A stretch of 64,000 nt of DNA, from the NCBI RefSeq assembly GCF_000151315.2, contig NW_011887292.1:2998063-3062062 (forward strand). Direction: 5' to 3'. This DNA comes from Capsaspora owczarzaki ATCC 30864. Taxonomy: Eukaryota; Opisthokonta; Filasterea. Positions within the stretch are counted from its first letter, which is position 1. Each line of letters opens with the position of its first letter. Position numbers and translations under genes: made by a program. Positions 1 through 30,861 of the stretch are shown one piece after another. Under the pieces are notes generated by a model. It ran no database searches. It was not told where the DNA came from and saw nothing but the letters and a program-made list of their open reading frames with translations.

Positions 1-344
1 GAGCTTTGGACGGATTTTTCCCCTCAACAACTCCACAAGAGGCCGTTCTCAAGCAGCGTGCTGGCATCCGATTGGGGCTTCGGCTTGAGAAACGCATTGC
101 ATTGCATTGCATTGCAGTCCATCCAAACAGCGCAACCCGACCTGAATGAATGCTGAATGCTGGGATCTCAAACGATCTCTGTTTTTTTTTTTTTTATTTT
201 TTTTTTTTTTTTTTGGCTTTGAATCCGAAGGGTCTGATGAGACTTTGGGGGTCATGGAATAGACGCGTTTGACGCTGAGCGTTGCTCTGAGGTTGCAAAT
301 CGAGAAGCACAACGTGTGGTCTGCCAGGCGAGCGCGACGACGAC

Positions 345-347
<3 letters not shown>

Positions 348-417
<70 letters not shown>
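348..417. repeat. (GA)n microsatellite, about 35 units
   Basis: Pure GA dinucleotide run in what is probably an intron of OST48. It is flanked by long T runs (191-214 and 463-494). Confidence 0.95.
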
Positions 418-419
<2 letters not shown>

Positions 420-458
420 AATTTTTATTTATTATTTTCAATGGATTTTCAATGGATT

Positions 459-490
<32 letters not shown>

Positions 491-495
<5 letters not shown>

Positions 496-523
496 GTTTT
501 GGTTTTGGTTTTGGTTTTGGTTT
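491..523. repeat. TTTTGG hexanucleotide repeat, five units
   Basis: Five GG pairs spaced exactly six bases apart in a T background, directly after a poly-T run and just upstream of a possible splice acceptor at 529-530. It lies in intronic or untranslated sequence of OST48. Confidence 0.85.
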
Positions 524-588
524 ACTCACAGTTTGACCCGTTTCAATCAATGAATCTGTTTTTGGTCTGCTGCTCTCATTGGACACAG

Positions 589-2039
589 AGCAAGATTTCA
601 CCCTCTCGTTTGCGCTGGCCGACGAGAAGAAGCTCTCTCTGAGCAGCTACGGCGACCGCATCTACGACAACTTGATCATCTTCGCCCCGTCTGCGGAGGA
701 GTTTGGCGGATCGCTCACTGTGCGCTCCATTCTCGACTTTGTCGACCACGGTGGCAACGTCATTGTTGCAGGCAGCTCGAGCATTGGCGAGCCCATCCGC
801 GAGTTTGGCAGCGAGTGCGGCTTTGAGTTTGACGAGGAGAGCGCGGCCGTCATTGATCACATCAACTTTGACTCCAAGCTCGACAACGGCGAGCACACCA
901 CCATCGTCACCGATCAGATCATCGACAACAAGGTAAGATGTTGATTTGTGTTTTGGAAGCGGCGGTGCTTTGGAAGCGGGGTTGATTTTGGTTGGTTGAG
1001 CGTATGCGGTTTATTCACTTTGCATTTCTTTTTGACTTTGTCGCCTCACCCCGCCGTCGCTACCTCATCTTGATTGCTTGAATTGTACGCCCCAATGATC
1101 AGTTGATTGCTGGCACCAACAAGGGCCGTGTTCTCTTCCGCGGCGTCGGTCTCGTGCAGGATCTGTCCAACCCCCTTACCATCCGCGTCCTGTCGGCTGA
1201 ATCCACCGCATACACTTACTTTACCGACGAGAAGGTTTGTTCTGTGCCAGTCGCGTGCCGAGGAAGGATTTGCATACCGGCAGACTTATCACTTATCCTT
1301 TTCTTTTGTCTGTTGTTTCCCTTTCCCCCCCCCCTCTTTCCAAACAATGCAGATCTCGGTCGCTCCTCACGTCGTTGGCAGCAAGACAGTGTTGGTGGGT
1401 GCCTTGCAGGCGCGCAACAATGCTCGCGTTCTGTTCTCTGGCTCGCTCGATCTCTTCTCGGACGAGTTCTTCAACGCGCAAGTCAATGTTGCTGGCGCGA
1501 CTGCCTCGCCATCTGCCAACCGCGACTTTGCCATCAGCGCTGCGCTCTGGACCTTCAAGCGCTCTGGTATTCTCCGTGTGAGCGGCGAACCCAAGCACCA
1601 TCTTGCCGGCCAGACAACAGTTCCAGAACTGTACACTGTGTTTGACCAGATCGAGTACTCGCTTCGTGTGGAGGAGCTCGTCGACCGCAACTGGGTTGGC
1701 TACCAGGGCAATGACATGCAGCTCGAGTTTGTCATGCTCAACCCTTACTTGCGCTTGACGCTCAACAACACTGGCGACGGCGTCCAGCACGCCAGCTTCC
1801 AGGCTCCCGACGTCTATGGCGTCTTCCAGTTCCGCGTCGACTACAAGCGCACCGGCTACACTTATGTGCAAGTGCACAACCAAATCCCCGTTCGGCCGTT
1901 GCAAAACACTCAATACGAGCGATTTATTTTCTCGGCCTTCCCCTATTATGCTTCGGCCTTCTCCATGATGGGTGGCCTCTTTGTCTTCTCGCTGGTTTTC
2001 CTGTACCATCGCGAAGCCCCTGCTACCAAGAAGAACTAA
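589..2039 (+). CDS. DDOST: Oligosaccharyltransferase 48 kDa subunit (OST48/DDOST/Wbp1), 5' end outside window
   Basis: Non-catalytic subunit of the ER oligosaccharyltransferase, which moves the lipid-linked glycan to asparagines of nascent proteins. Three exons are visible: about 589-932, 1103-1234 and 1353-2039 (stop TAA). Introns are GT-AG and all junctions keep phase. The translation follows animal DDOST closely: YDNLIIFAPS, the GSECGFEFDEE block, LFRGVGLV, GLQARNNARVLFSGSLD, LPDVYGVFQF-type block and RPLQNTQYERFI, then a C-terminal membrane segment (FSMMGGLFVFSLVFLY) and a short lysine tail KKN, typical of this ER type I protein. The first roughly 55 residues (signal peptide and TLVLLDN-type start) are missing. 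I found no exon for them in bases 1-588, so they probably lie before the window. Identity is very secure; the exact start of the first visible exon (589 or 591) is not. Confidence 0.95.
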
Positions 2040-2265
2040 CTGCCAACCCATTAAGGCAGGGCTGGTGATGACAACTGTTCGCGAGCCAGGAGGTTGTGAC
2101 GTAATTTTTTTTTCCCCCCTCTGCTTTCTGACGTCCTCGCCTCAGTCCCGTGTGCTACTGTTGCACCAGCCTCATCTAAGTAGTACAAAACAGCTCATTT
2201 TTGTGCATGTCTCCGTATGTATCGTTGTGTGTATGTGTTTGTGTTTCACAATAACAAATTTTTTC

Positions 2266-2298
<33 letters not shown>

Positions 2299-2875
2299 TT
2301 TTCGACTTGGTTTGTCTCATCGTTGTTGAACTATTGTACCTCTCTCTCACAAGCGTTGAAATTGTGAAGGAGGATTGCAGTAGAATACAAACTTAGTACT
2401 ATTGCAAGTGTGGTACAACATGAAACGGAAACACACACACACACAAAAAAAAAAAATGTACAATCATACAAACACTCACTCATTCACACAACAAAAACAG
2501 AAAACGAAACAAGTCCAGCACCAATAACAAGAACGACAAGGAAACAAACAAGAAAACAAAGACCAATCGAACAACGTCCCCGCGGACACCGAATCACGAA
2601 AACGCCGTTCAAGTAACTGAAATACTGAACAAAAGAGCAGGGACAGGAGGAGAAGAGAAAGAGAGGTAGGCATCGAGATGAAACGAGCAAATGCCCTCTC
2701 ACGTGACTGAAAGGGACAAGAAAACATGATACAAAGAAACTAAAAGAGATAGAGAAAAAACAAAAAGAGAGAGAGAGAGCTCCAACACAGATGCAATCGA
2801 AAATACAGGCCTTCCCGTCAATAGTACAGGCGAGCGCTGAGTGCGCTGCAAGCATGGGAAGAGGGAATCACCAGT
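2040..2875. other. Convergent intergenic region (3' UTRs of OST48 and forkhead gene)
   Basis: Low-complexity T-rich then A-rich sequence between two genes that end toward each other, with a short CA repeat near 2431-2444. No credible coding sequence on either strand. Confidence 0.7.
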
Positions 2876-3436
2876 TCACAACGAGTTTGACGTGCCAGAC
2901 GTGAGTCGGGCGCTATCACCGGGCGGCGTGCCAACCAGCTGAGTTTGCTGGGGAGAGTAGGCCCCAGGAGACATTTGCGGATGACTCATAAAGCTCAGCT
3001 GATGGGCTTGATTGATGGCGTTAGAGTCAAGGCTGCCTGTGCTGATTCGCCGACGAACGGCGGGATCTAGCGACTGCGGGTCCACGTCCCCGGCGCCATT
3101 GCTGAATCCCGAGTGTCCTTCTCCTGGACCGAACTGCATCTGCTGCATCAGGCCAGAGAGTGCTTGTGGGGGAGACAGCGGACTGCGACCGCGTCCGAGG
3201 GAAGACAGAGTTGGCATTGCCGAAGCCGAGCGCGAGGCTAGCGCGTTCTTGCGATCCTCCACATTGCGGCGGTTATGTCCGTTGCGTAGATCGGCCAGGC
3301 TTCCAGTCTCGCTTGCATTGGTGCGCAGCGATCCAGGCGAAGGTGCCATAAATTGCGGCGACATCATGGGGTGCTGCTGCTGCTGCTGCTGCTGTTGTTG
3401 TTGTTGCTGTTGGTGATAGTGGTGTTGCAATTGTTG

Positions 3437-3472
<36 letters not shown>

Positions 3473-5286
3473 GAGTTGATACTGCTGTTGCTGCTGTTGC
3501 TGCTGCTGTTGTTGCTGCTGCTGTTGGTGTTGTTGCAGCTGAAGCTGAAGCAATTGCTGTTGTTGGTGTTGTTGAAGCAACTGGTGCTGTAGTTGCTGCT
3601 GCTGTTGTTGCTGCTGGTGGTGCTGTTGTTGTTGCTGCTGGCTGGGATGCGGCTGCTGCTGCTGCTGCTGCGCCAATAGCAAATTTAACTGCTCGTTCAA
3701 AAAGTCGGTAGATTCGCCCAGACTCAGATCTGCGGCCAGGGGCATTCCTACGCTGAACATGGCGGCCGTATCTGTGACATCATCGCCAGGCAGTTGGATA
3801 CGTTCAGGCAGCGTGCCGGACAAGTTGACGCTGTGGGTGTGCAGACTCTTGAAGCTCAGGTTCAAATCATCCACAAAGCCAAAGTCACCACCGCCATTCA
3901 AGATAGCGCTGCTCATCGTTGGCGTGTTGATTGCAGAGCTGTTTTGTGAGCTCTGCTCGCTGTCGGTATTGCCACTGATGATGAGCTTTGCGGGTTTGCG
4001 AGGCAAGTAGTTGGTATCAATTTCGCCCTCCTTGATATCCGGGTTGTATGGCATGGGTCCTTTCGAGGCCGAGTTGGACCGTGAGCGGCGGCGCTGCTTG
4101 CTTTGGCGCGACGACAAGTCGGTGGTTTGCGTCTCATCCAGCGTCCAATATGCACCCTTGCCCGGATCTTCCCGCTCTCTCGTGACACGCTTGAAGCACT
4201 TGTTGAGCGAAAGATTGTGGCGAATAGAGTTCTGCGTTAGTTTTCAGAGCAAGAGAACGGAGGGATCGAGTGAGGAATGGCAGAACACAACACGAGAGAA
4301 AAGAAAAAGAAACAAAAAGCAAAAAAAAAAAAAAAAAGCAAAAAAACAGCGTCAAAGCGGGTACCTTCCATCCAGTCGACGTTGTCTGATAGAATGGATA
4401 ATTCTCAGAAATCCAATTGTAAATGTTGCTCAGCGTCATTCGATGATCTGGCGTGCTCTGGATTGCACGCGCAATCAACGTGGCGTATGAAAATGGTGGT
4501 TTCCCACCCGAGCCTGGCCCGCTGGATCCTGGGCTGTCGATGGAGCCTAGATGCTCGTTGTAATCGGCTTCCAGCGCTCCGTCCAAAATGTCGTCAAAGT
4601 CGTTGTTCGCAGGAGACGACACAAAATCAGAATCAGCCGCAGGTGTGAGCGGGTGGCCGGCATGTTGGTCGTGCGGTTGCGCAGGGGCTGAAGCGGATTG
4701 CGAGGATTGAGCTGCCGACTGTGATTGTTGTGCTTGTTGCTGTTGTGCCTGTTGTTGAGCCTGTTGTTGTGACTGTTGCTGCGACTGTTGCTGTCCATGG
4801 GGTTGCTGGGATTGTATGGTGGCAAGCATCGATGTAGCGATCAAGTCCAACGCACTGTTTTTGGAAACACTTGCGCGACTGGCACGCCGAGAGCGACCCT
4901 TTGTTGGTGTGGAGGCACCCGATCCATTGGGCGAAGCGCTGTTCAGAGAAGTGAGCGACGGATGCTGGGACAGTGGCGTAAAAGCCGAGCCGGTGGAGGG
5001 TGCGGCTCCCGGTGCGGCTCCAAACATGCTGCCATTATTCAGACCATTCAGCGACGTGGCAGACGTGGGCATGGACGAATGAGAAAAGAGTTCTGTAGGT
5101 GTGACGGCGCGTGGCAGAGCTGGTTGAGGCTGGGAAGGATGCGCTTGCTGCGGAAAAACCTGCTGAGGTTGGTTTTGCGAGTAGTACAACAACTGTGGTG
5201 GTAGTTGATCAGCGCTCGCGAATGCCGCTTGATCCAAGTGGAAGTCTTGAGCAAGCTGTTGTTGGTGTTGGTGTTGTTGTTGTTGT

Positions 5287-21782: not shown

Positions 21783-21792
21783 CGTTCTACTC
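21783..21792 (+). repeat. Left target-site duplication of the MULE
   Basis: CGTTCTACTC, identical to 26915-26924 on the other side of the element. Confidence 0.85.
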
Positions 21793-21796
21793 CGAA

Positions 21797-21829
21797 CCAG
21801 AACAATACGCCTAAATCCCTACGGGTTCC
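21797..21829 (+). repeat. Left terminal inverted repeat of the MULE
   Basis: Begins CCAGAACAATACGCC and ends ACGGGTTCC. Its reverse complement matches 26879-26911 at 31 of 33 positions. Confidence 0.92.
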
Positions 21830-22511
21830 ATAATGAATGGTAAAATGGCAATCGTGAGATATCACCATAATCGACCCACCATTGTGATCGACTTGATGTG
21901 GCCAATAATAGTGTCAGAGGAGTGGCGGTGCTCAGATGAGCGGTTTTCTCAGAAAATCGAAAAATAAAAATGGCCTCGAGGCCACCGCAAAACGGCGCCA
22001 CAAGCGTTCTTGCAGGACAAGTGCAGCAGAGCATCATAATCTTTGCTCAACTTTGCACCCCCCGCATTTTCGAGATCGAGCACACCGACTGCATAGGGTG
22101 CATCGCGTACTATCACGGCGAGGAAGCGCGCAGGACAGAAACACTGTTTTGACCCCTAGAAGAACGCCACAACGCCGGTCGCCCTCGCCGAGCTCGATTT
22201 CCGACGTGTCCAGTCGGTGTCGGACCGCGCACTTTTCAGGGGTGATTACAGATGATATTTACAACCGTTTTGGCTCAATGGCGGGGCGATCGCGGTGGGG
22301 AGCGATTTTGTGTGAAGCTGGATCTTTACTACTTTGGGCTGGATTGAGCCACTCTTTTCTGTTGTTCTTCCGAGCCATAGGTCTCGGGTCGATTCTTGTA
22401 CTTTTCCGTCCTCACGAGACCGACCAGACCTGCAACACACACACACACGTCAAGCAATTCATCCAAGCATAAGAGCCCGACGCACAAGAGCCAGCGAGAG
22501 CACGAGGCGAG
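21830..22511 (+). other. 5' non-coding region of the MULE
   Basis: About 0.7 kb between the left inverted repeat and the transposase start. Contains partly self-complementary segments around 22069-22220 (an ACACCGACTG / CAGTCGGTGT pair) and a short CA run (22437-22448). Presumably the element's promoter; no other gene seen. Confidence 0.5.
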
Positions 22512-25500
22512 ATGGAGGAGGACGAGGAGATCCAGTCGCAACCAAGCTACGAGACATGCAGTGTGCGGCTGGTGGTCCTTCACGACCTCGTTCCCGACGC
22601 CAGCCAGGATCGCTTCATGGATCTGGATGTACCTGTTGCCCAGCCAGAGGCGCTGCCAACGTACGGCGATGTGGAGCGAGCCTTGCAGACCCATGACTTT
22701 AGAGAAGTTGCCTTCCGCCCAAACCCTCAGTTTTGGTTTCCAGTCGTTGGCGTCAAGAACAAGTTCTACCCGTCGAACAAGACGATTGCACACCCCGGAT
22801 GCGTTCATCTTTCTGTCAGGTTGCGTTGCCCCTGTTGCAAATCCAACGTCCCGCGGTCGCGATTTCACAGCGCGAACAAAACTTGAGATTGTCTTCCGTG
22901 CAACCCGCGTCCACCGGCTTGGCCGACGACGAAACTAGCGTAGTGCAAGATGATAGGGACGACATTCTTGAATTTCTTAACGTCCAAGACGGGCACGACG
23001 AAAACTGCCGCTCAAGAACGCCTCGGAAGCGCAGAGGAGTCCATCTCACCAAGGAGGAGCGAGACAGACTTCCGCAGTGGAGCCCTAGTACGACGCTCAT
23101 TCCTGTTCGAACACGTCGTTGGTATTGCTTCAATAGACGCGATCCGTCGAGGCCGCCTACCGTGCCAGACACACCAACTCTCCAACAACGATTTATTCGC
23201 GCCTGCTCCAGCAAGAAGCGAGTTGACAACAACTTTCAGTTACGTCCGGAGCTCGGCGCCGGATCCTGCAGTTTCGGCCTGAGATTGACGGAGCTTGGCC
23301 AACACACGCACGGCGAGCTGCACCTTATTGGGTTCAAGCTCGAGCAGATGGGTCGCCACGACATGGCTTGCACCGACGGCTCGCTCGCTTTCAAGCAGCG
23401 CGCGCATCCTGAAATCAAAGAGTGGGTCATGGATCTGATGCGCAAGGGGTGCTCGGAGGCGTCCATTGTAGCGCAGTTGGAAGGGCCAACTCTCAACCCG
23501 CCGCCTCGCCCTCTTTCAAGTTGGAACGTACCGTACACTTCTGGTCGCTGGTATCCCACCAAAGACGCAATTCGCATGATGATAGTCAACTCAAGCAGCG
23601 AGAAGCTACATGGAACCGACCAGCAGCGCATCGACCAATTTCTCGCGTCATCCTCGTCGTATGCCTGCTCTCACCCTCACTCGCTCTACCAAGATGGGCA
23701 GTGCCCCGGCGAAAGCCAATACGGCGACAAAAGCGATGTCATTTATCATCAATTTGTTCACTGCGACTGCCAGAGCTGCCTCGAAATCCCCCTGAGGGAG
23801 TCGAACATTCTGATTTTAATGACGCCTTGTCAGCGGGCAACGTGGGACGCCCTTCGTCCCAAGGTCCTGTTCCTGGATTCAACCTTCTCAGTCAACCGCT
23901 ACGACTGGGCGACAACAGCACTCGTTGCTGCTGACGAATCAGGCGCTGGTGTTGTGCCGCTGGCGTTCATGATCTCCGACAGAGATCGCGAGCATGAATA
24001 TGCGCGGTTCTTGTCCGAGGTCAAGCACGCCGTAGGTGAAGCGTTTAATCCGGTGCGCATCGTCATCGACAAATGCGGCGCTGAGCGAAACGGCATCAAT
24101 CAGGCGGTGCCGGGTGTGCAGGTGGCAACTTGCTGGTTTCACGTCTGCCAAGCGGTGGAGCGCCAGTACCCGGGCAGACTAGATCTTCTCTCGTGTATGG
24201 CTAAAATGCGGTATGCCAGGAATGCACAAGAGCTGAAGGACGCGAGCAACAGCTTGCTCAACGCCGCCGGCGAGTTCCAAGGTTATTTTCTGTCTCAGTG
24301 GCTCAACGAACGAGATATTAAAACCTGGACGCTCTTCCACCTTGGCTTGGTGCGTGATGCGCTGGATCAAGGCCACACCAACAATTTGATTGAGCGGTAA
24401 GCTTGTGATGATTGTGAGTCGCTTGTCCCGTGCCGAACTTTGGAACCTCGTTGACTTGTCATTGCGACTTGCCTCCCCCATAGCTTTTTCGGCACGTTCA
24501 AGTACAAGTTTCTGAAAGGTTACCGCATGCACGATTTGGCAGGTCTCGCAATCAGGATTGTTCGGGACACGAACCAGCACTTCTGTTTGCAACGCCAACG
24601 CCAGCGACTCGACAAGCCGAATGTCGCCTTCCTTCCAAAGTTCCGCTCCTTACTGCTTGAGAAAGAGATGCACGCAGAGAAGCTCGTGGAAACCGGTCAG
24701 GTGTTGGAGCTTCATCGCTACTTTGGTGTAGGACTTGTTCTGCCTCAGCGGACGCTTTCTGAGCTTGATCTACTCCAAATTCGCGAACTCGCAAACGCTC
24801 ACCTTGAGCCATTTTATCAGACGCGTGGCATGCCCTTGACTGAGGGTTTGCAGCAGCTGCACGAAGCGCTGAAGCAACAGTACCCAGATGTTGTGGTCGT
24901 TGGTGTCGAGCGGCGCTTTTGCAGCGCCATGCACGATCACGCTTTCATTTGCAGCCACATCCGTGCCGTCGCGCGGCACTTTGGAGGCATCGAGAACTTT
25001 CGTCTTCAAATCCATTCTCTCTTCGAAGAGCCACCAGTGTGTCCCGTGTCCCGCTCAGCACCCGTCAATCCTGCAAGCGAATCTGCTGTGTCCGCAGCCA
25101 CTACTGCTTATGCCGATGATGCCCTGCCGACTGGCGCAACCGACATGGCCGTAGACGATCAGCTTGATGCAGACGGACCTGCTCGCACCTCTGACATGGC
25201 CGTAGACGATCACCTTCCCTCGGGCCCGGATGCAGACGGACCTGCTGACCGCACCTCGGACCTCCCCGCCGAGCTCGATCCGAATCACGGCGCGTCACCT
25301 TCTGCGAGTAACTCCGATGATGCTCCAGAGCACAGCTCTGGCCTTGTTGAGACGGTGGCCAGTCCCGACGACCTGGTGGACGAGCTCTCCAAGCTGTTCG
25401 AGAAAGGACTCGAGCGTCTCAAGACCATGGCTCAGGGCGATGAGTTGCACAGCCTCGTTCGCCAGCTCACACGCAATTGCAGCAACAGCATGCGGAATGC

Positions 25501-26053
25501 GACAGGTCAGCGAGGGATTCTTTCATTATATACCCGGCGCACGCGTGGTGCAACTCGTAAGGCTGCCAAATCTACCCGAGCTGCCCAAGCCAAGGCAAAG
25601 CGAACTGCTGCTGCCAAAGCCAACCGAGCAGCAGCAGCAGTAGCAGCAGCAGCAGCATCAACATCGTCAGTCTCAACCGTTCTTCCAGGTAACGCAACTG
25701 CATCCGCAGCAGCGTCGTTGGCGACCAGTTCGTGGACACGACGCAAGAAGTCTGGAGTGAAGGGGCGGCCCAAAGCTAAGCACCGTGTTCCTGCTGCACT
25801 TATCCGAGAAGTCGCAAGATCCTTTTGCGCCAAAGACAGTCAAGCATTCGAGAGCGCAAGGGCCGCGGTGACTGCGTACAAAACCCAACAGTTTGTCGAC
25901 TACATCCCGCCTTCTCGCAGCAATCGCGGTACTCGAGATCCGTGGGGCGACACTACCCCTTCATTTGCTGATTCCGATCCCACATTTGGGAATGCGAGTG
26001 ATGGTGCACGTTCAAGCCAGTCGGGAACGACCTCGATTGGAAGCCAGAGCTGA
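22512..26053 (+). CDS. MULE-type DDE transposase (three exons)
   Basis: Catalyses cut-and-paste transposition of the element. Exons 22512-22819, 22939-24396 and 24484-26053 join in phase to 1111 residues. MULE catalytic core: first Asp in VLFLDSTFSVN (residue 416), second Asp in VRIVIDKCGAE (480), the C-x2-H of ATCWFHVCQ (501/504) and the Glu in NNLIERFFGTFK (588). The second intron splits the codon just after this Glu. A degenerate SWIM-like segment (FCSAMHDH then ICSHIRAV) lies near 732-745. The C-terminal third is low complexity: an acidic part with an internal duplication, then an Ala/Lys/Arg-rich basic part. The first intron was chosen because it is GT-AG and restores frame. Without it the N-terminal frame runs through a Cys-rich CPCC patch and stops, so a zinc-finger variant is possible. 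Confidence 0.85.
25142..25255 (+). repeat. Imperfect tandem duplication in the transposase C-terminus
   Basis: Two copies, 25142-25192 and 25193-25255. Each starts with the same 20 bases (GACATGGCCGTAGACGATCA) and shares GATGCAGACGGACCTGCT; the second has a 12-base insertion. It encodes repeated DMAVDD...DADGPA. Confidence 0.9.
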
Positions 26054-26055
26054 CC

Positions 26056-26589
26056 NNNNNNNNNNNNNNNNNNNNNNNNNNNNNNNNNNNNNNNNNNNNN
26101 NNNNNNNNNNNNNNNNNNNNNNNNNNNNNNNNNNNNNNNNNNNNNNNNNNNNNNNNNNNNNNNNNNNNNNNNNNNNNNNNNNNNNNNNNNNNNNNNNNNN
26201 NNNNNNNNNNNNNNNNNNNNNNNNNNNNNNNNNNNNNNNNNNNNNNNNNNNNNNNNNNNNNNNNNNNNNNNNNNNNNNNNNNNNNNNNNNNNNNNNNNNN
26301 NNNNNNNNNNNNNNNNNNNNNNNNNNNNNNNNNNNNNNNNNNNNNNNNNNNNNNNNNNNNNNNNNNNNNNNNNNNNNNNNNNNNNNNNNNNNNNNNNNNN
26401 NNNNNNNNNNNNNNNNNNNNNNNNNNNNNNNNNNNNNNNNNNNNNNNNNNNNNNNNNNNNNNNNNNNNNNNNNNNNNNNNNNNNNNNNNNNNNNNNNNNN
26501 NNNNNNNNNNNNNNNNNNNNNNNNNNNNNNNNNNNNNNNNNNNNNNNNNNNNNNNNNNNNNNNNNNNNNNNNNNNNNNNNNNNNNNNNN
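26056..26589. other. Assembly gap (534 N)
   Basis: Run of N beginning two bases after the transposase stop, inside the MULE. Gap length may be an estimate. Confidence 1.
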
Positions 26590-26878
26590 TCACTGCTACG
26601 CAGCCTGACTGGGTGACCCGATCCGCCCGCCCTTCGACCCCATGACTCAAACACCAATACCATTCCATAAATGCCCTAGTAGTGGGTTGCTGGTCCACCG
26701 TGGGGGTTGGTGGCTTGGCCGCTCCCTGCGCGCTCGCGTCGCTCCCAACCATTCCCTCCCGTGCTCGGTCCAGCGCAGACTTTTTCACCGGCTCAAAGCG
26801 GAAATCTACATTATCATTTATGGGCAACATGATGTTGGCAGAGAGAAGAGGCTAGATGACACTTTGAGATTCGGACCT

Positions 26879-26911
26879 GGAACCCGTAGTGATTTAGGCG
26901 GATTGTTCTGG
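26879..26911 (-). repeat. Right terminal inverted repeat of the MULE
   Basis: Ends GGCGGATTGTTCTGG; inverted match to 21797-21829 with two mismatches. The sequence 26590-26878 between the gap and this repeat is non-coding as far as I can see. Confidence 0.92.
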
Positions 26912-26914
26912 CAC

Positions 26915-26924
26915 CGTTCTACTC
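26915..26924 (+). repeat. Right target-site duplication of the MULE
   Basis: CGTTCTACTC, identical to 21783-21792. Confidence 0.85.
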
Positions 26925-27148: not shown

Positions 27149-27202
27149 CATTGCATTTCGCTTTGAGCGTTTCAAAATTTCAAAATCCGACTCTGCCCAA
27201 TC

Positions 27203-30200
27203 ATGGCCGCGGTGCCGAGCGGCGCGATTGCCGTGTCAGCCAGATCCGTTGCGGCAATGGACGCAATGGTCTCGCGCGTGATTGCGCACATTGCAAGCGT
27301 GAGTGAGGAGCGCGACGCACTGCTCGAGCACATTGGCCAGCAGGACGCGCTCGTCGAGGCGCTCAACGCCGAGCTTGTGGAGAGCGACCGGATTGCCGAG
27401 GAGCTGCGCGCCAAGCACGGGGCGTCTGCTGTGGAGCTCGACCGCCAGGCTGGCGTCGTTCGGGAGCTGCAGCAGTCGCTGCAGCAGCAACGCGACGCTG
27501 CTGCGCAAACGCGCGGCGAGCTTGAAACCGCTCAACGAGAGCACTCTGCTGCAGTCGCGGCACTCGCTGCCACGGCCGCTCAGGATAGCAGACACCACTC
27601 GGACCAGCTTGACGCGATTCAGCTTGAGCATGCCACGCAGGCAGCGTCGGCGCGACGGCAACGGGACGAGTTGCTCGCTGCAGTGAATCGGCTCGAGCTC
27701 GAGTTGGCCAATCTCCGCGCTGCTCAGACACAGCAGACCGCACGGTATGAGGCCGAAGTCGAGGCGTTGCGTCAGGAGGCTCGCACTTTGACGGCCGAAG
27801 GTATTACTCGTTCCGAACAAGAGCTGTCACGCAAAGCCGAGTTCCAGGCGACGCTGGCAACGCTCAACCAGACCCATGCCGCAGCCATGAGCCAACTCCA
27901 AGATCGACTGGTCGCTACGCAAGCAGAGTTGTCACAGTTGACCAGCGAGCATGCTCTCGCCGTCGAGGCCCATCAGGGCGCAATGGCAGCGTCCAGACTC
28001 GAGGCTGACGAACTGAGGCGCGCCAAGGCCGCGCTTGAAGTCGAGCTGCGAGACGGCAAGCGCGCCTACCTCAAGGAGGCCCAGCAGTTGACCCTCGAGG
28101 CCTTGGTTCAGCGCGAAAAGGCCGAGCTGTTGGCAAACCAGCTGGCCTCGGCGACACGCGTGTTCGAGGCGCGGCTGCTCGACACCCAACGACTTGAAGC
28201 TGCTGCGCTCAAAATGTCGCAGGCCCAGGCCAAAACGCGAACTCAACGGAATTCACTCTTGCAACTGCTACGCCAGGCACGAGCGGACGCCCATTCAGGC
28301 CGGATGCAGAAGGAGATTCTCGAGGCGAGCCTCGCGTTCGAACGGAGCCGTCTTGCAACTTCTAGGGCCGAACTAGTGAGCGCAAAAGTGGCCGATGCCA
28401 ACCATCACAGCGAACTGGTTGCTGTTCGTCACCAGGTAGAGCTCGATCGCCAAGCACTCGAGATGGAGAAGGCACATGCTGCCGAATTGCAACAAGCCAA
28501 CCACTCGATGAGTCAGCAGATTGATCAACTGCATCAAGAGCAGCGCAGGGTTGAACGTCAACATCAAGAGCAGCGCCAACAGCAAGAACAGCAGCGCCAA
28601 CAGCAAGAACAGCAGCGCCAACAGCAAGAACAGCAGCGTCAACAGCAAGAACACCAACGTCAACAGCAAGAGCACCTGCGCCTCCGACAAGAGCAGGAGC
28701 GCCTCCAACAGGAGCAACGCCAACAGCAGGAGCAGCGCCAAAAACTACAGCAGCAAGAGCAGGAGCAGCGCCAGAAGCTGCTGCAGCAAGAGCAAGAGCA
28801 GCGCCAAAAACTGCAACAGCAAGAGCAGCAACGCCTGCAGCACGAGCAGCGCCAACGACAAGAATTGCAAGAGCAACTACATTTGCTGGAAGAGGAGCGT
28901 CAACATTTGCTGCAAGAGCAGCAGCAGCAACACCACCAACTGCTGCAGCAACTTCAGCACAGTCATCAGCTGGAATTGCACCAACAACGGCAGGAACAGC
29001 TGCAACTACAACACGAGCAACTATTGCAACACACAGCCGAGAAGAAGCTCCACCAAGCTACCGTTGTCGAAGTGCTCAGTCAGCTTCATCAGCAGCAAAA
29101 GCGGCAAGAGCAGCAGATCCAAGCTTTGCAGCAAAAACAAGAAGAAATGCATTCCCAGTCTCGGCAAGAAGTGCAATCTCAGTCCTTCTCGGCTCGAGCG
29201 TCACCTGCACACCGTGCTCAGCAACCAGAACTTGGCCAACAAGACGGGCGCAGTGTTATTGAGGGCGATGTGGTACATTCGCAAGAATACGTGCCACGTC
29301 GTCAGGAGCAGCAGGAGCAGCAGCAGCGACAAGCAGAAACCGCTTCGCCACATCGTCATCGTCCCACGGAGCACTTTGGGCCGGCGCAGCAAGGGAGTGT
29401 GCCATCCGGCAGCGTGACAGCCGCATCTTTGACGTCGGATGCCATTCCTGCACAAACCCTGCACCCCTCTCATGAGCAGCTTGAAGCTGTTGAGGATCCA
29501 TCGCAGCGAGAGCTGGATGAACAATTGGCGGCGTTTTTGAGGGAGAACATTTCCATTCCCAAAGACGAGGCGCAGCAGCTGCAAAACTACCTGACAGCTC
29601 TCGAGCAACAGGCCCATGATCAAGCCAACCGCGCACAGCGGTATCGACTCGCGGCCATGGCATCCGCAGCTGAGGGCGAGCAACTTCGGCTGCAGGTTGC
29701 GCAGCTGCAAGAAGCGGCCGTGTTGCAGCAACAAGAAATCGCCGACTCTCTTCAGCACACTGCAGAATTGATGCTCGATCGCGACATGCTTGCGTTGCAG
29801 CTCACCGAGCTTGATCAAACTGCCCAGAATCACGCTTCCTTGTCAGACCTGCAGCAGCAGCAACAGCTTTTGATTCAGCAACAGCAGCAATTGCATCAAC
29901 AATTGCTGCAACAAGCGCAGCAACAACAAGCGCAGCAGCAACAAGCGCAGCAACAAGCGCAGCAACAACAAGCGCAGCAACAAGCGCAGCGCAGCAACAA
30001 GCGCAGCAACGACAAGCGCAGCAGCAAATTCCACAGCCTGTTGTCCTGTCTCACGAGAACTGTAACCCTCAGCCGCACCTTGCCGAATGGCATCAACGCT
30101 CTTCCTCCAGTTGCTACAACGCTCTTCCTCCAGTTGCTACACTTTCGCAATCTCGCATCGACCACCAGCACGGCTTGCCCCAGAGCTCTTCGAGTAGTAT

Positions 30201-30861
30201 CTACACTGCATCTGTCCGCGATACTGCACCACAACAAGCCACACCGCTGATGCCATCGGTTGATGTTGAACCCACAGTCGCCAACGCGCCGCAGCAGGTA
30301 CTGGAGCCCATCAATCAAAGCACGATGGCACCAGTCCTTCACTATCTTCATCCAGCCTCGACGGTAGTTTCTGAAACAGCAAACCAGGCGCAAGCAGCAG
30401 CAGTTTCTTCTGCACAAGCCCCACTCCCTCCTACGGCGCGAACGTCTCAACGCGCCGCCATTCAGCCGCTCTTGGAGCAGTTTTGGGCTCTGGCGGAGCA
30501 ACACGCACAAGTGACAGCTCGTGCCGAGCTGTTGGCTAGCTTGCGACCTCCGAGTCCACAAAGCCTGCAGAGCGAGCTGCTTGACGACGACGAGATGATT
30601 CATGACGAGAGCTTCCACACTGTTGGCCAGCACGATGCCTCGTCCCTGCCCGCCACTGAGTATCACGAGTTTGGCCAGGAGCACATTGACACAAATGAGT
30701 TGCTTGCGGCCCTGGATGGGGTGGCACAGGCGCACAACTCTTCGTATGGCGGAAATTTCGCCACCACTGGCTGGGAAGACATCAAAGCCACCCTGGGTCA
30801 TCAGTCATGGCATGCTGGTCACGCAGCTGAGCAATCGACCGATTATTACTACTACAACTAG
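27203..30861 (+). CDS. Large glutamine-rich coiled-coil protein, function unknown, with a frame change in its repeat
   Basis: About 1200 residues without visible introns. Residues ~20-440 show strong heptad-like coiled-coil composition (SEERDALLEHIGQQ, QVELDRQALEMEKAH). About 440-620 is an E/Q/R repeat built on QRQQQEQ units. A second coiled coil lies near 780-890, then a QQQAQ repeat. The first frame carries everything to about 29,990. From there the sensible frame is the next one, which continues QQIPQPVV and ends with an acidic tail (LLDDDEMIHDESFH) and DYYYYN at the stop 30859-30861. The switch sits at an irregular unit (CAGCGCAGCAA) in a CAA/GCG/CAG repeat, so it is either an assembly or read error or a true repeat-length change. 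I see no intron that would bridge it. No family recognised; structural or scaffold roles are only a guess. Confidence 0.75.

What the first reader, a model, noticed from the sequence alone, without database searches (positions are those of the whole stretch)
21783..26924. Structurally complete MULE with inverted repeats, target duplication and an open intron-containing transposase
Seen directly: 33-bp inverted ends with two mismatches, identical 10-bp direct repeats outside them, and a transposase with Asp416, Asp480 and Glu588 in MULE contexts plus the C-x2-H between them. Three exons join in phase to 1111 residues. Identical flanking repeats argue for a recent insertion and possible activity. 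The short ends (33 bp, against roughly 100 bp or more in many plant MULEs), the introns and the long acidic-then-basic tail make it a candidate for a distinct MULE lineage.
Basis: partly seen in the sequence, partly recalled or inferred. Interest (0 to 1): 0.8.

Follow-up and report, generated by a model that had tools for sequence, protein, structure and literature searches.

The report
Deleted copy of Capsaspora Com1 transposon
This is a recently inserted but internally deleted copy of an already published cut-and-paste transposon (the MULE family Com1) of the animal relative Capsaspora; it has lost a piece of its transposase gene, so it most likely moves only with help from other copies.

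Summary
The inverted ends, a target duplication (9 bp, not 10) and the catalytic Asp, Asp, C-x2-H and Glu are really there, and the element is a genuine MULE. It is not new. The genome is Capsaspora owczarzaki, and the element matches the published family Com1 (nine-base duplications; 5' diversity 0.015 in the paper, 0.0151 here).

Completeness and the three-exon gene fail. Of seven copies found, five, this one included, share one 334-bp deletion at 22885/22886; two carry the segment wholly or in part. In the deleted copies that frame stops at 22884; the proposed intron, and the one in deposited protein CAOG_08308, bridge the break. The C-terminus here is cut by a private 1-bp insertion at 26014 and an N run. 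Only the 87-bp intron after the catalytic Glu looks real; three MULE lineages share it.

The deleted form has spread most recently (two copies without a single substitution), so it is best read as a non-autonomous subfamily moved in trans. Interest is modest.

The parts
21784..21792 (.). left 9-bp target-site duplication GTTCTACTC
   Evidence: exact match to 26916-26924; 9-bp length set by comparing copies
21793..26915 (+). whole element, a Com1-type MULE copy, 5,123 bp including 534 N
   Evidence: same boundaries CGAA...CACC in the 6 two-ended copies found
21797..21829 (+). left terminal inverted repeat, 33 bp
   Evidence: 31 of 33 match to the right end; the same left version in the 6 two-ended copies
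26879..26911 (-). right terminal inverted repeat, 33 bp
   Evidence: the same right version in the 6 two-ended copies
22512..22885 (+). N-terminal part of the transposase gene up to the deletion; its frame hits a stop at 22884-22886
   Evidence: frame continuous across this point in the undeleted copy L050
22885..22886 (.). point of the 334-bp internal deletion shared by 5 of 7 copies; it removes the second Cys pair and basic stretch of a Cys4 zinc-finger-like motif plus a linker, and shifts the frame
22815..22870 (+). stretch that the deposited model CAOG_08308 skips as an intron (inferred by comparing protein and DNA); it is coding in the undeleted copy L050
22888..24396 (+). transposase body with Pfam MULE domain; Asp codons 23876-23878 and 24068-24070, C-x2-H 24131-24142, Glu 24392-24394
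24397..24483 (+). 87-bp phase-2 GT-AG intron directly after the catalytic Glu
   Evidence: same position and phase in Com1, the Com2-like family and a third MULE lineage
24484..26013 (+). C-terminal transposase exon with a SWIM-like C-x3-H-x5-C-x-H motif, then an acidic and a basic stretch
   Evidence: the SWIM label is recalled, no Pfam hit on this exon
26014..26014 (+). private 1-bp insertion that shifts the frame and creates the early stop at 26051-26053
   Evidence: absent from the 6 other aligned copies
26056..26589 (.). run of 534 N hiding the true C-terminus and part of the 3' region
26916..26924 (.). right 9-bp target-site duplication GTTCTACTC

Best explanation
The stretch is a recently inserted copy of the Com1 family of Mutator-like DNA transposons in Capsaspora owczarzaki ATCC 30864. 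A full Com1 transposase presumably binds the 33-bp ends with an N-terminal zinc-finger-like domain, cuts with an RNase H-like DDE centre and inserts with a 9-bp stagger (function inferred from the MULE family). This copy belongs to a subfamily descended from one element that lost 334 bp of coding DNA. That loss took half of the zinc-finger-like motif and put the N-terminus out of frame with the catalytic part. The subfamily kept intact ends and has spread most recently, so it is most likely non-autonomous and mobilised in trans by transposase from undeleted copies. Shown: copies, ends, duplications, shared deletion, frame breaks. Inferred: mobilisation in trans, zinc-finger function, and the name Com1 from matching traits.
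For: Organism: the only database hit at E <= 0.001 among 5500 candidates is CAOG_08308 of Capsaspora owczarzaki, 96% identity over 89% of the query. Family: nine-base duplications and 5' diversity 0.015 for Com1 in PMC4007536, against 9 bp and 0.0151 over the first 300 bp of six copies here. Deletion: the same breakpoint in 5 of 7 copies; in L050 the frame is open across it; the L050 stretch that spans the segment aligns to the Com2-like family at E = 2e-10 to 7e-10, part of the alignment lying outside the segment, so the segment is most likely ancestral. Spread after the deletion: L046 and L047 have 0 substitutions, L045-L048 differ by 0-8, on different flanks. No purifying selection is visible between L044 and L047: 8 synonymous, 18 non-synonymous, p = 0.36 against neutral expectation.
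Against: The deleted copies keep a long open catalytic frame, and exon 2 has diverged less than the 5' non-coding region (10 of 1,511 against 19 of 682; p = 0.00015), which could mean selection or recombination between copies. Com1 is transcribed, and splicing of the deleted form was not tested. No copy that I found has both ends and an undisrupted undeleted frame, so the helper is not seen directly. Of six two-ended copies two lack a target duplication (4 and 3 of 9 bases match) and one is imperfect (6 of 9). The paper counts 19 Com1 copies from traces against 7 here. The paper's own Com1 sequence was not seen (supplements not available), and this genome holds three MULE lineages against the two families of the paper.
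Confidence: 0.78

Rival explanations
1. The deleted form is still autonomous: a short intron (22815-22870 as in CAOG_08308) or an internal start codon yields a shortened transposase that lacks the zinc-finger half but works.
For: CAOG_08308 reads across the break as if by that 56-bp intron; four deleted copies carry an ATG at 22943 where the window copy has GTG; the catalytic exons are nearly intact.
Against: The skipped stretch is coding in the undeleted copy. 32 GT-AG choices keep the frame open, so an open join is weak evidence. Several deleted copies have further breaks: L046 a 5-bp deletion, L048 a 23-bp deletion, L046-L048 a shared 6-bp insertion that carries a stop in the transposase frame, and L045-L048 one base fewer than L049 and L050 near 26052; CAOG_08308 itself reads in the longer frame at that last place, so it may be a variant or an assembly error.
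Confidence: 0.15
2. The window holds a complete, active autonomous MULE of a new lineage.
For: Exact target duplication, near-perfect inverted ends, MULE domain.
Against: 334-bp deletion, private 1-bp insertion and early stop; MULE families of this organism already published.
Confidence: 0.03
3. The 334 bp are a later insertion in L050 and in the C7:1267062-1279934 copy, and the shorter form is ancestral.
For: Only 2 of 7 copies carry it, one of them only in part because of a gap; I made no rooted tree.
Against: The segment is open in frame with both sides, and the L050 stretch aligns to the Com2-like family, including the K-T-C-x2-C-x-D-R-N motif.
Confidence: 0.04

Closest known systems
Com1 (MULE family of Capsaspora owczarzaki; Suga et al. 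2013, not seen; Carr and Suga 2014, PMC4007536)
   Same: organism, MULE superfamily, 9-bp duplications without a conserved target, 5' diversity 0.015, multiple near-identical copies
   Different: seven copies with transposase DNA found here against 19 counted from traces there; the shared 334-bp deletion is not mentioned in the parts read (Results, first part of the Discussion, passages); supplements not seen
Com2-like MULEs in the same genome (C8, C10, C14; loci L064-L066)
   Same: same order of parts, same intron after the catalytic Glu, zinc-finger-like N-terminus
   Different: 34-40% amino-acid identity to Com1; N-terminus undeleted; different C-terminal tail; whether this is the paper's Com2 was not tested
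KP-type internally deleted P elements of Drosophila (recalled)
   Same: an internally deleted derivative with intact ends that outnumbers full copies
   Different: unrelated superfamily; no repressor role tested here

Membership tests
Mutator-like elements (MULE) | MULE transposase domain with DDE residues and C-x2-H between D2 and E | tested here: met
   PF10551 E = 8e-12, 45.9 bits against cut-off 27.6; D416, D480, C501-x2-H504, E588
Mutator-like elements (MULE) | 8-11 bp, typically 9, target-site duplication (range recalled) | tested here: met
   exact 9 bp in 3 of 6 two-ended copies including this one; 6 of 9 bases in one; none in two
Mutator-like elements (MULE) | terminal inverted repeats shared by dispersed copies | tested here: met
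   13 end sites, 12 of them in six pairs, control 0
Com1 of Capsaspora owczarzaki | host is Capsaspora owczarzaki | tested here: met
   CAOG_08308 as the only database hit
Com1 of Capsaspora owczarzaki | 9-base duplication and low 5' diversity (0.015; Com2 0.197) | tested here: met
   9 bp; 0.0151 over 300 bp, six copies
Com1 of Capsaspora owczarzaki | identity to the published Com1 sequence | not testable with these tools
   no look-ups of supplementary files allowed; Suga et al. 2013 not held
Autonomous MULE | uninterrupted full-length transposase gene | tested here: not met
   334-bp deletion and 1-bp insertion
Non-autonomous MULE derivative moved in trans | intact ends, broken transposase, spread after the break | tested here: met
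   five copies share the deletion on different flanks
Non-autonomous MULE derivative moved in trans | mobilised by a helper copy | not testable with these tools
   needs a transposition assay

The most novel reading that the evidence does not exclude
Com1 has split its labour: a deletion subfamily that lost half of the transposase's zinc-finger-like domain does the moving, while an immobile copy without either end (C7:1267062-1279934, open on both sides of its assembly gap and flanked by a 192-bp direct repeat) supplies the transposase, on the way to becoming a host-resident gene.
Probability: 0.15. Interest if true: 0.5.

Novelty: already known. Interest (0 to 1): 0.25.

Why it matters
It corrects the reading of a published family: diversity measured only at the Com1 ends cannot see that the most recently spread copies found here carry a broken transposase, and the deposited gene model CAOG_08308 seems to contain an intron that bridges a deletion. 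It is a compact case of a non-autonomous subfamily taking over in a close relative of animals. It would not surprise a transposon specialist much.

Tried and rejected

Led nowhere: three protein searches returned only CAOG_08308 (the tool needs shared exact 5-residue words, and one search scored only the 7994 candidates sharing most words), so I built no DDE phylogeny and rely on the paper's statement that the families nest among opisthokont elements (its MULE tree is in a supplement not seen). The phage collection gave no match. A keyword search for work on internally deleted MULEs listed four papers, none opened. PMC6446971 was searched for passages only and does not name Capsaspora. Pfam found no match above cut-off in the N-terminal zinc-finger-like stretch of L050. 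The attempt to find ends on the third-lineage fragments failed.

Rows dropped before the copy count (64 matches; 40 of 65 candidates scored, counts are lower bounds): diverged fragments on C14:884023 (72%), C6:1297757 (73%) and C5:1059269 (72%), the lone end on C11, end-to-end cross matches, and many short matches at query 3798-3896 that look like simple AGC repeats. The seventh copy counts C7:1267062-1267750 and C7:1275927-1279934 as one element split by a gap.

Full report
Identity. The window lies in a 27.46-Mb genome in 29 contigs. The spliced transposase has one database relative at E <= 0.001, CAOG_08308 of Capsaspora owczarzaki ATCC 30864, at 96% identity over 89% of the query. Carr and Suga 2014 (PMC4007536; I read the Results, the first part of the Discussion and passages) treat two MULE families in this organism, Com1 and Com2, both with nine-base duplications without a conserved target. 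Com1 has 19 copies counted from traces, 26,930 RNA reads, 12 identical copies and a 5' diversity of 0.015; Com2 has 0.197. Six two-ended copies here give 0.0151 over the first 300 bp. I therefore name the element Com1; the reference sequence itself could not be seen.

Ends and copies. The end motif, searched with up to three mismatches, occurs at 13 sites, all without mismatch, control 0; twelve form six pairs and one is alone on C11. DNA search (lower bounds; 40 of 65 candidates scored) finds seven copies with long transposase sequence: L044 (window), L045 (C9), L046 (C4), L047 (C7:4308), L048 (C17), L050 (C7:620545), and a seventh without ends at C7:1267062-1279934 (L009, L049, L051), counted as one copy across a 7,944-N gap. 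Diverged fragments at 72-73% were left out of the count. The six two-ended copies run CGAA...CACC. Exact 9-bp duplications flank L044, L046 and L050; L045 matches 6 of 9; L047 and L048 have none. About 400 bp of flank on each side shows no blastn match between copies. This supports repeated transposition, and recent insertion of the window copy, which lies between a gene read here as UDP-glucose dehydrogenase (my reading, not tested) and a long Q-rich open frame at 27167-30250.

Divergence. L046 and L047 differ by 0 substitutions, L045-L048 by 0-8; the window copy differs from these four by 64-66 and from L050 by 51; L050 differs from L045-L048 by 77-80. An unrooted FastTree places the window copy between L045-L048 and the L049/L050 pair.

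The gene. The window frame from ATG 22512 stops at 22884. Relative to L050, five copies (L044-L048) lack the same 334 bp at 22885/22886. In L050 the frame reads through this point without an intron and encodes C-x2-C ... K-T-C-x2-C-x-D-R-N and a basic stretch, with a counterpart in the Com2-like family (E = 2e-10 to 7e-10 for the L050 stretch as a whole). The seventh copy, whose sequence resumes inside the 334 bp after its gap, agrees with L050 from there on (176 of 176 residues). The deletion is thus most likely derived and shared by descent. The 87-bp intron at 24397-24483 looks real: position and phase are the same in Com1, the Com2-like family and a third lineage. At the 3' end the window copy has a private extra base at 26014 and poor agreement next to the 534-base run of N, so its stop at 26051 is not the family's C-terminus; in the seventh copy the frame ends at ...NPEFL.

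State of each copy. L044: 334-bp deletion, 1-bp insertion, N run. L045: 334-bp deletion and one base fewer than L049/L050 near 26052. L046: the same two, a 5-bp deletion, and a 6-bp insertion with a stop codon. L047: the same two, an in-frame 18-bp deletion, and the 6-bp insertion. L048: the same two, a 23-bp deletion, and the 6-bp insertion. L050: undeleted, but with 32-bp and 2-bp deletions and two 1-bp insertions in the gene. Seventh copy: carries the segment at least in part, open where sequenced, no ends, a 7,944-N gap. So 0 of 7 copies has both ends and an undisrupted frame. CAOG_08308 reads in the longer frame near 26052, so that 1-bp difference may be an assembly matter.

Mechanism. 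Shown: a lineage with intact ends and broken transposase has multiplied after the break. Inferred: it uses transposase made elsewhere. Between L044 and L047 the counts of 8 synonymous and 18 non-synonymous changes fit neutrality (p = 0.36). Against a simple picture, exon 2 is less diverged than the 5' non-coding region (10 of 1,511 against 19 of 682, p = 0.00015), and synonymous sites too (8 of 712, p = 0.03).

Verdict. A real, recently mobile MULE copy of a published family, internally deleted and probably non-autonomous. The correction is useful; the element is not a new kind.

Noticed in passing
G000 C7:1266874-1280123 (L051, L049): A Com1 copy of the undeleted lineage lacks both ends (element positions 155 to 5094), holds a 7,944-N gap, and is flanked by a 192-bp identical direct repeat of a sequence that has relatives elsewhere in the genome.
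   Followed up: partly
G000 C11:8732-8774 (L052): A lone right Com1 end, 43 bp, joined on its inner side to an A-rich stretch; the C7 copy without ends breaks at the same element position, 5094/5095.
   Followed up: partly
G000 C4:1338400 (L057), C2:1837754 (L067), C17:389111 (L068): A third MULE lineage, 30-32% identical to Com1 and the Com2-like family; fragments on C2 and C17 match it on both sides of one and the same internal deletion of about 1.86 kb.
   Followed up: partly
G000 C7:4308, C8:2595, C14:3808, C11:8740: Four MULE features lie within 9 kb of contig starts; this may be a subtelomeric preference or simply assembly breaks at repeats.
   Followed up: no
G000 C14:884023-884385, C6:1297757-1297955, C5:1059269-1059398: Diverged fragments (72-73% identity) of the Com1 5' and 3' non-coding regions, perhaps old copies or relatives.
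   Followed up: no
window 21830-22511 against 22886-24396: The 5' non-coding region differs more between L044 and L047 (19 of 682) than exon 2 (10 of 1,511) and than synonymous sites (8 of 712; p = 0.03), which hints at selection or recombination between copies.
   Followed up: partly
window 27167-30250: A long Q-rich, coiled-coil-like open frame of 1,027 residues (stop to stop) begins about 250 bp downstream of the element.
   Followed up: no
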